Shown: piece by piece, positions 6,099 through 6,337 of the stretch | Layout of the letters: every line of letters starts with the position of its first letter | How positions within the stretch are numbered: position 1 is the first letter of the stretch | IMG/VR virus record: IMGVR_UViG_3300020195_000168 | Coordinates: 1-22,941 of that record | DNA length: 22,941 bases | Source: a virus | Reading direction: 5' to 3' (one strand) | Notes under the pieces: generated by a model | Database searches by the model: none | The model's input: only the letters and a program-made list of their open reading frames with translations | What the model was told of the DNA's origin: nothing | Program-made: the position numbers and the translations under genes

Positions 6099-6337
6099 TC
6101 AGAATGACGTGGGCTTGGCGACTGCGCGGACGAGCACCATGAAGCCTTTCTGCAGATCGGTTCGCCCGATCGCGACCCAGCGCGGATCCACGCCGGTCGG
6201 GTCTTCCTTGGCCGAAGCCGCGAGCTTGTTGCACAGAGCGCCACCGCGTTCGCCTTCTCTTTGATCTCGTTCATGAGGTCGATCTCGGCCTGCGTGAGAT
6301 CTCGATACCCGGTGATTTTCTGATGCTGGTTGTCCAT
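6099..6337 (-). pseudogene. Acb2/Tad1-like anti-CBASS/anti-Thoeris sponge, frameshifted
   Basis: The N-terminal frame reads KITGYRDLTQAEIDLMNEI, and the -1 frame continues as RWVAIGRTDLQKGFMVLVRA with the ending AKPTSF. Together these are the two halves of the Acb2/Tad1 hairpin-domain family, small phage proteins that sequester cyclic nucleotide signals of CBASS (and in Tad1, Thoeris signals). The two frames join between about 6256 and 6233. One missing G in AAGGCG would restore an intact protein of about 80 aa, close to the family length. Start: ATG with GGGAG upstream, 3 nt after the multi-HTH gene stop. No slippery heptamer is visible, so a deletion or sequencing error is likelier than programmed frameshifting. 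Without the shift, the frame runs into an arginine/serine-rich tail ending at 6005. Confidence 0.82.

What the first reader, a model, noticed from the sequence alone, without database searches (positions are those of the whole stretch)
6099..6337. Acb2/Tad1-like counter-defence gene split by a single -1 frameshift
The N-terminal half (ITGYRDLTQAEIDLMNEI) and C-terminal half (RWVAIGRTDLQKGFMVLVRA) of a cyclic-nucleotide sponge lie in two frames that join between about 6256 and 6233. Adding one G to AAGGCG gives one clean protein of about 80 aa. Seen: the two frames and the strong family resemblance, a good Shine-Dalgarno, and gene order. Known: the Acb2/Tad1 hairpin family blocks CBASS (and Thoeris) signals. 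Inferred: either a recently inactivated anti-defence gene, or an assembly error hiding a working one. Either way it marks CBASS/Thoeris exposure in the host lineage.
Basis: partly seen in the sequence, partly recalled or inferred. Interest (0 to 1): 0.75.

Follow-up and report, generated by a model that had tools for sequence, protein, structure and literature searches.

The report
Frameshift-broken acb2 anti-CBASS sponge gene
An environmental phage fragment carries an otherwise well-kept gene for Acb2, a small protein that soaks up bacterial alarm signals, but one single-base frameshift splits it in two; this is a natural or apparent loss-of-function copy of a kind already documented in other phages.

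Summary
Confirmed: on the minus strand, ATG at 6337 to stop at 6099, there is an acb2 gene whose two halves lie in two frames. Read through, it hits Pfam PF24729 (Acb2/Tad1 hairpin) at 66.7 bits, E 2e-18. Each half alone hits the same model, and codon usage independently puts the frame switch at about 6232-6244. All residues invariant in 79 relatives are kept, and the joined sequence scores as well as intact copies. It is therefore an Acb2 with one fresh lesion and no other decay. The family is stand-alone Acb2, not Tad1, so the Thoeris/gcADPR part of the reading is unsupported. The break is not programmed: 198 of 201 other distinct copies are intact, the three broken ones are hit elsewhere, and no slippery site exists. 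Best reading: a recent loss-of-function allele, with assembly error as the main rival; reads are not available and no near relative exists. Broken acb2 copies in nature are known (PaMx41 stop, T4-like phages), and laboratory T4 escapers from the Panoptes system carry acb2 frameshifts. Loss of acb2 could therefore be adaptive, but nothing here shows which pressure acted. New member of a known kind; modest interest.

The parts
6235..6337 (-). acb2, N-terminal part in the ATG frame (residues 1 to about 33): start, Gln4-His5, Gly10-Tyr11-Arg12, Met22-Asn23, Lys26
   Evidence: PF24729 25.8 bits, profile 1-22; codon score +25.5; invariant residues kept
6099..6242 (-). acb2, C-terminal part in the -1 frame, ending at TGA
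   Evidence: PF24729 33.4 bits, profile 20-58; codon score +20.6
6232..6244 (-). zone of the frame change, inside the first long helix
   Evidence: best switch points gene bases 93-105; helix 16-41 in the model of an intact relative; no homopolymer of three or more at the junction and no X XXY YYZ heptamer
6345..6349 (-). GGGAG Shine-Dalgarno-like sequence, 7 nt from the ATG
6005..6337 (-). 110-aa run-on product actually encoded in the ATG frame: about 33 Acb2 residues plus about 78 out-of-frame residues
   Evidence: ORF list; tail scores -36.9, like a wrong frame
5881..6096 (-). next gene, 71-aa Cys-rich protein of unknown function, starting 2 nt after the acb2 stop
   Evidence: sequence; no family or phage hit
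6341..8272 (-). preceding gene, array of excisionase/MerR-like HTH units; its stop overlaps the acb2 leader

Best explanation
The locus is a phage acb2 gene (stand-alone Acb2 hairpin, a cyclic-oligonucleotide sponge that normally protects phages from CBASS) carrying one single-base frameshift about 33 codons in, so that no full Acb2 is made. Shown: family, lesion, and absence of other decay. Inferred: the lesion is real and recent in this phage. The break falls in the middle of the first long helix, so the ATG-frame product keeps the N-terminal ligand residues but loses the hairpin turn, the second helix and the C-terminal tail. The ligand pockets are built by N- and C-terminal elements of several protomers in a hexamer (PMC12043709), so the truncated chimera should neither assemble nor bind. 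The phage would lose CBASS evasion and would also stop triggering sponge-sensing defences such as Panoptes.
For: PF24729 joined 66.7 bits, halves 25.8 and 33.4; phrog_717 spans both parts; solved VP882 p26/Acb2 8h2j and 8ixz match by sequence. A model of an intact relative (84% identical in the N part) matches Acb2 8h2x (E 4e-5) and T4 Vs.4 7uq2 (prob 1.00), with helices 16-41 and 47-69. Codon usage shows both parts were coding, with a switch at 6232-6244. In a leave-one-out profile test the joined sequence scores 127.1 bits, above 65 of 79 intact relatives, with all 100% conserved columns kept. The other large genes of the window are open and full length, e.g. primase 1-911 against a 930-position profile, so the record is not generally indel-ridden. 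No homopolymer of three or more at the junction argues against the commonest sequencing-indel type. The gene is dispensable: seven records with similar neighbouring or core genes lack it, with a positive control. Precedents: PaMx41 ORF24 36 aa against 93 aa in PaMx43; T4 Panoptes escapers with acb2 indel frameshifts (PMC12657218); natural T4-like phages with acb1/acb2 loss of function (PMC12657230).
Against: No reads and no near-identical record exist to confirm the base. Absence of further decay is exactly what an assembly error would also give. 198 of 201 other copies are intact, so a broken copy is a priori uncommon.
Confidence: 0.57

Rival explanations
1. Assembly or sequencing error: the phage carries an intact, working acb2 and the contig consensus lost one base.
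For: The record is a virus contig of IMG/VR, probably metagenomic. The joined sequence shows no other decay. The only frameshifted copy among 201 others is also in a metagenome-assembled genome (L103).
Against: No other frame lesion was seen among the large genes of 22.9 kb, and there is no homopolymer at the junction. Two of three other broken copies are nonsense changes, which assembly errors make less readily.
Confidence: 0.37
2. Programmed -1 ribosomal frameshifting makes the full protein from the split gene.
For: The two frames overlap over a long open stretch, and a GAGAAGG Shine-Dalgarno-like run lies upstream of the junction (sequence).
Against: No X XXY YYZ heptamer in frame and no run for transcriptional slippage; no relative needs a shift and none is split at this place.
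Confidence: 0.02
3. The two halves are separate genes that work together.
For: Both frames are open beyond the halves.
Against: The C part has no start of its own near the junction; the break lies inside a helix, not at the hairpin turn; relatives are single genes.
Confidence: 0.01

Closest known systems
Acb2 (VP882 p26, PaMx33/43 gp24, T4 Vs.4; PF24729, PHROG 717)
   Same: Sequence over the full length (about 40-60% to isolates, up to about 65% to IMG/VR copies), conserved residues, predicted hairpin fold, small phage gene among small accessory genes
   Different: Here the reading frame is broken at about residue 33; loop shorter than in VP882 and PaMx
Natural and selected acb2 loss-of-function alleles: PaMx41 (premature stop), T4 Panoptes escapers (indels, stops), T4-like phages with acb1/acb2 defects
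   Same: Otherwise normal acb2 inactivated by one small lesion
   Different: Different phage group (integrase- and CII-bearing fragment), different lesion, unknown host and unknown selection
Tad1
   Same: Shares the Pfam hairpin model
   Different: Tad1 has an additional N-terminal beta-sheet part; absent here

Membership tests
Acb2 | Match to the hairpin profile PF24729 over its whole length | tested here: met
   Read through: 66.7 bits, profile 1-58/58
Acb2 | Family-invariant residues (Gln4, His5, Ile8, Gly10, Arg12, Leu14, Ile19, Met22, Asn23, Lys26, Met67, Arg71, Pro76) | tested here: met
   Column table of 79 distinct relatives
Acb2 | Helical hairpin like 8h2x and 7uq2 | tested here: met
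   Met for the intact relative L007, not folded for the broken window gene itself
Acb2 | One uninterrupted reading frame giving about 74-100 aa | tested here: not met
   Frame change at 6232-6244: member by descent, not a working member as sequenced
Acb2 | Sequesters cyclic di- and trinucleotides | not testable with these tools
   Needs a binding assay
Tad1 | N-terminal beta-sheet part before the hairpin | tested here: not met
   Hairpin profile starts at residue 10 of the ORF and the preceding sequence is another gene's end; feature from PMC12043709
Programmed frameshift genes | Split conserved among relatives and a slippery site at the junction | tested here: not met
Acb2 loss-of-function alleles selected by Panoptes | Host lineage with Panoptes, and the mutation confers escape | not testable with these tools
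   Host unknown; precedent only in PMC12657218 and PMC12657230

The most novel reading that the evidence does not exclude
The frameshift is a true, very recent wild allele favoured because losing the sponge lets this phage pass a defence that senses sponges (Panoptes-like). That would make it a natural counterpart, in an environmental temperate phage, of the T4 escapers selected in the laboratory.
Probability: 0.15. Interest if true: 0.5.

Novelty: new member of a known kind. Interest (0 to 1): 0.27.

Why it matters
If the lesion is real, it adds one wild acb2 loss-of-function allele to a short list (PaMx41, T2/T4-like phages) that speaks to how often phages give up a signal sponge. The census made here (3 of 201 distinct copies broken, plus this one) gives a first rough natural frequency. 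It also warns that anti-defence genes in viral contigs should be checked for reading frame before a phage is credited with CBASS evasion.

Tried and rejected
Close relatives of the whole record: none by megablast in phages, none by an exact 24-mer in IMG/VR; best acb2 identity about 65%. Control rate of broken neighbours: 85 homologous small-gene places were intact; the 44 places flagged as broken are reverse-strand hits, most lying opposite acb2 itself, and were discarded. Too small to test enrichment. Loci L239 and L259 lacked an N-terminal match because of divergence, L152 and L241 because the contig ends. L013 first looked start-less; its ATG lies one codon upstream.

Full report
What was checked. 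The window is a complete IMG/VR virus record of 22,941 bases, 64.6% GC. On the minus strand an ATG at 6337, 7 nt after GGGAG, opens MDNQHQKITGYRDLTQAEIDLMNEIKEKANAV. The sequence then continues as Acb2 only in the -1 frame...ALCNKLAASAKEDPTGVDPRWVAIGRTDLQKGFMVLVRAVAKPTSF, to the TGA at 6099. For searches the one broken protein was read through with an X at the joint.

Is it more than chance? Pfam PF24729 (Acb2/Tad1 hairpin) scores 66.7 bits (E 2.1e-18) for the read-through, 25.8 for the N part and 33.4 for the C part. A scan of the raw record, without any joining, finds two overlapping PF24729 pieces in two frames. Independently of relatives, codon usage trained on the window's other genes puts both parts in coding frames, with the switch at about 6232-6244. 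The ATG frame beyond that point scores like a wrong frame.

What it is. 224 phage records, 53 plasmid records, and 134 viral and 20 bacterial contigs hold relatives. Solved relatives are VP882 p26 Acb2 (8h2j, 8h2x, 8ixz) by sequence, and an AlphaFold model of the intact relative L007 matches Acb2 8h2x and T4 Vs.4 7uq2. The gene is a stand-alone hairpin; Tad1 has a beta-sheet part before the hairpin (PMC12043709), which is absent. It is therefore Acb2 by descent, and a gcADPR/Thoeris role is not supported.

State of the gene. In an alignment with 79 distinct relatives every fully conserved position is kept on both sides of the break. In a leave-one-out profile test the read-through scores above 65 of 79 intact copies. 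There is thus one lesion and no trace of drift: the break is very recent, or it is an artefact. The model places it inside the first long helix (16-41), not at the turn, so neither half should fold as a hairpin (inference).

Is the break shared or programmed? Separate searches with the N and the C part avoided a bias against split copies. Of 201 distinct copies with both parts, 198 are intact; two carry a TAA (L037, L199) and one, in a MAG, a frameshift near residue 15 (L103). None is broken where the window is. No slippery heptamer or homopolymer is present at the junction. Programmed frameshifting and two-gene readings are rejected.

Context. The fragment has an integrase, a primase (57% to Kisquinquevirus; gene order more like Microcystis phage yong1), an HNH endonuclease, a second tyrosine recombinase, a CII-like regulator and tail genes. 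Relatives of the preceding three-gene module (L272-L275, 53-73% identity) and of the primase (L002, L003, yong1) lack acb2 in the records held. The same profile search does find acb2 in known carriers. acb2 is an accessory gene here.

How it most likely works. Intact Acb2 binds cyclic di- and trinucleotides and so blocks CBASS (PMC12043709). As sequenced, the window encodes about 33 Acb2 residues followed by a nonsense tail, so it should have no sponge activity (inference). Losing the sponge has a known benefit: 14 of 15 T4 escapers from Panoptes carried acb2 mutations, including frame-shifting indels (PMC12657218). Natural T4-like phages with acb1/acb2 defects resist Panoptes (PMC12657230), and PaMx41 carries a natural stop in acb2 (PMC12657218). 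The last was checked here as ORF24 of 36 aa against 93 aa in PaMx43. Whether Panoptes, mere lack of CBASS pressure, or nothing at all acted here cannot be told: the host is unknown.

Real or artefact? For real: no other frame lesion seen among the large genes, no homopolymer at the junction, known precedents. For artefact: a contig without reads at hand, no decay, and most copies elsewhere intact. I put real at about 0.57 and artefact at about 0.37. Reads would settle it. The exact base change that would mend the frame is deliberately not written out; intact copies exist in relatives.

Noticed in passing
window 6341-8272 (-): A protein of about 640 aa that reads, by eye, as about eight tandem excisionase/MerR-like winged-HTH units (Pfam HTH_17, NCBIfam excise, weak PADLOC mad1). 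No relative in 50,697 phage records, four near-identical IMG/VR relatives at 56%.
   Followed up: partly
window 8272-9695 (-): The P-loop ATPase (weak PADLOC mad8) and a 160-aa protein are kept next to the multi-HTH gene in L272-L275 at 73% and 53% identity: a conserved three-gene module of unknown function.
   Followed up: partly
L037:5001-5222, L199:841-1084: Two other acb2 copies interrupted by an in-frame TAA in metagenomic viral contigs, otherwise intact.
   Followed up: yes
L103:5956-6174: acb2 copy with a frameshift near residue 15 in an Azonexus MAG.
   Followed up: yes
window 319-1335 and 11659-12318 (-): Two tyrosine recombinases on one short phage fragment; the inner one lies between the CII-like gene and the replication genes, as in yong1, L002 and L003.
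   Followed up: no
window 11195-11920 (-): Its C-terminal part is a DUF7673 domain protein of unknown function.
   Followed up: no
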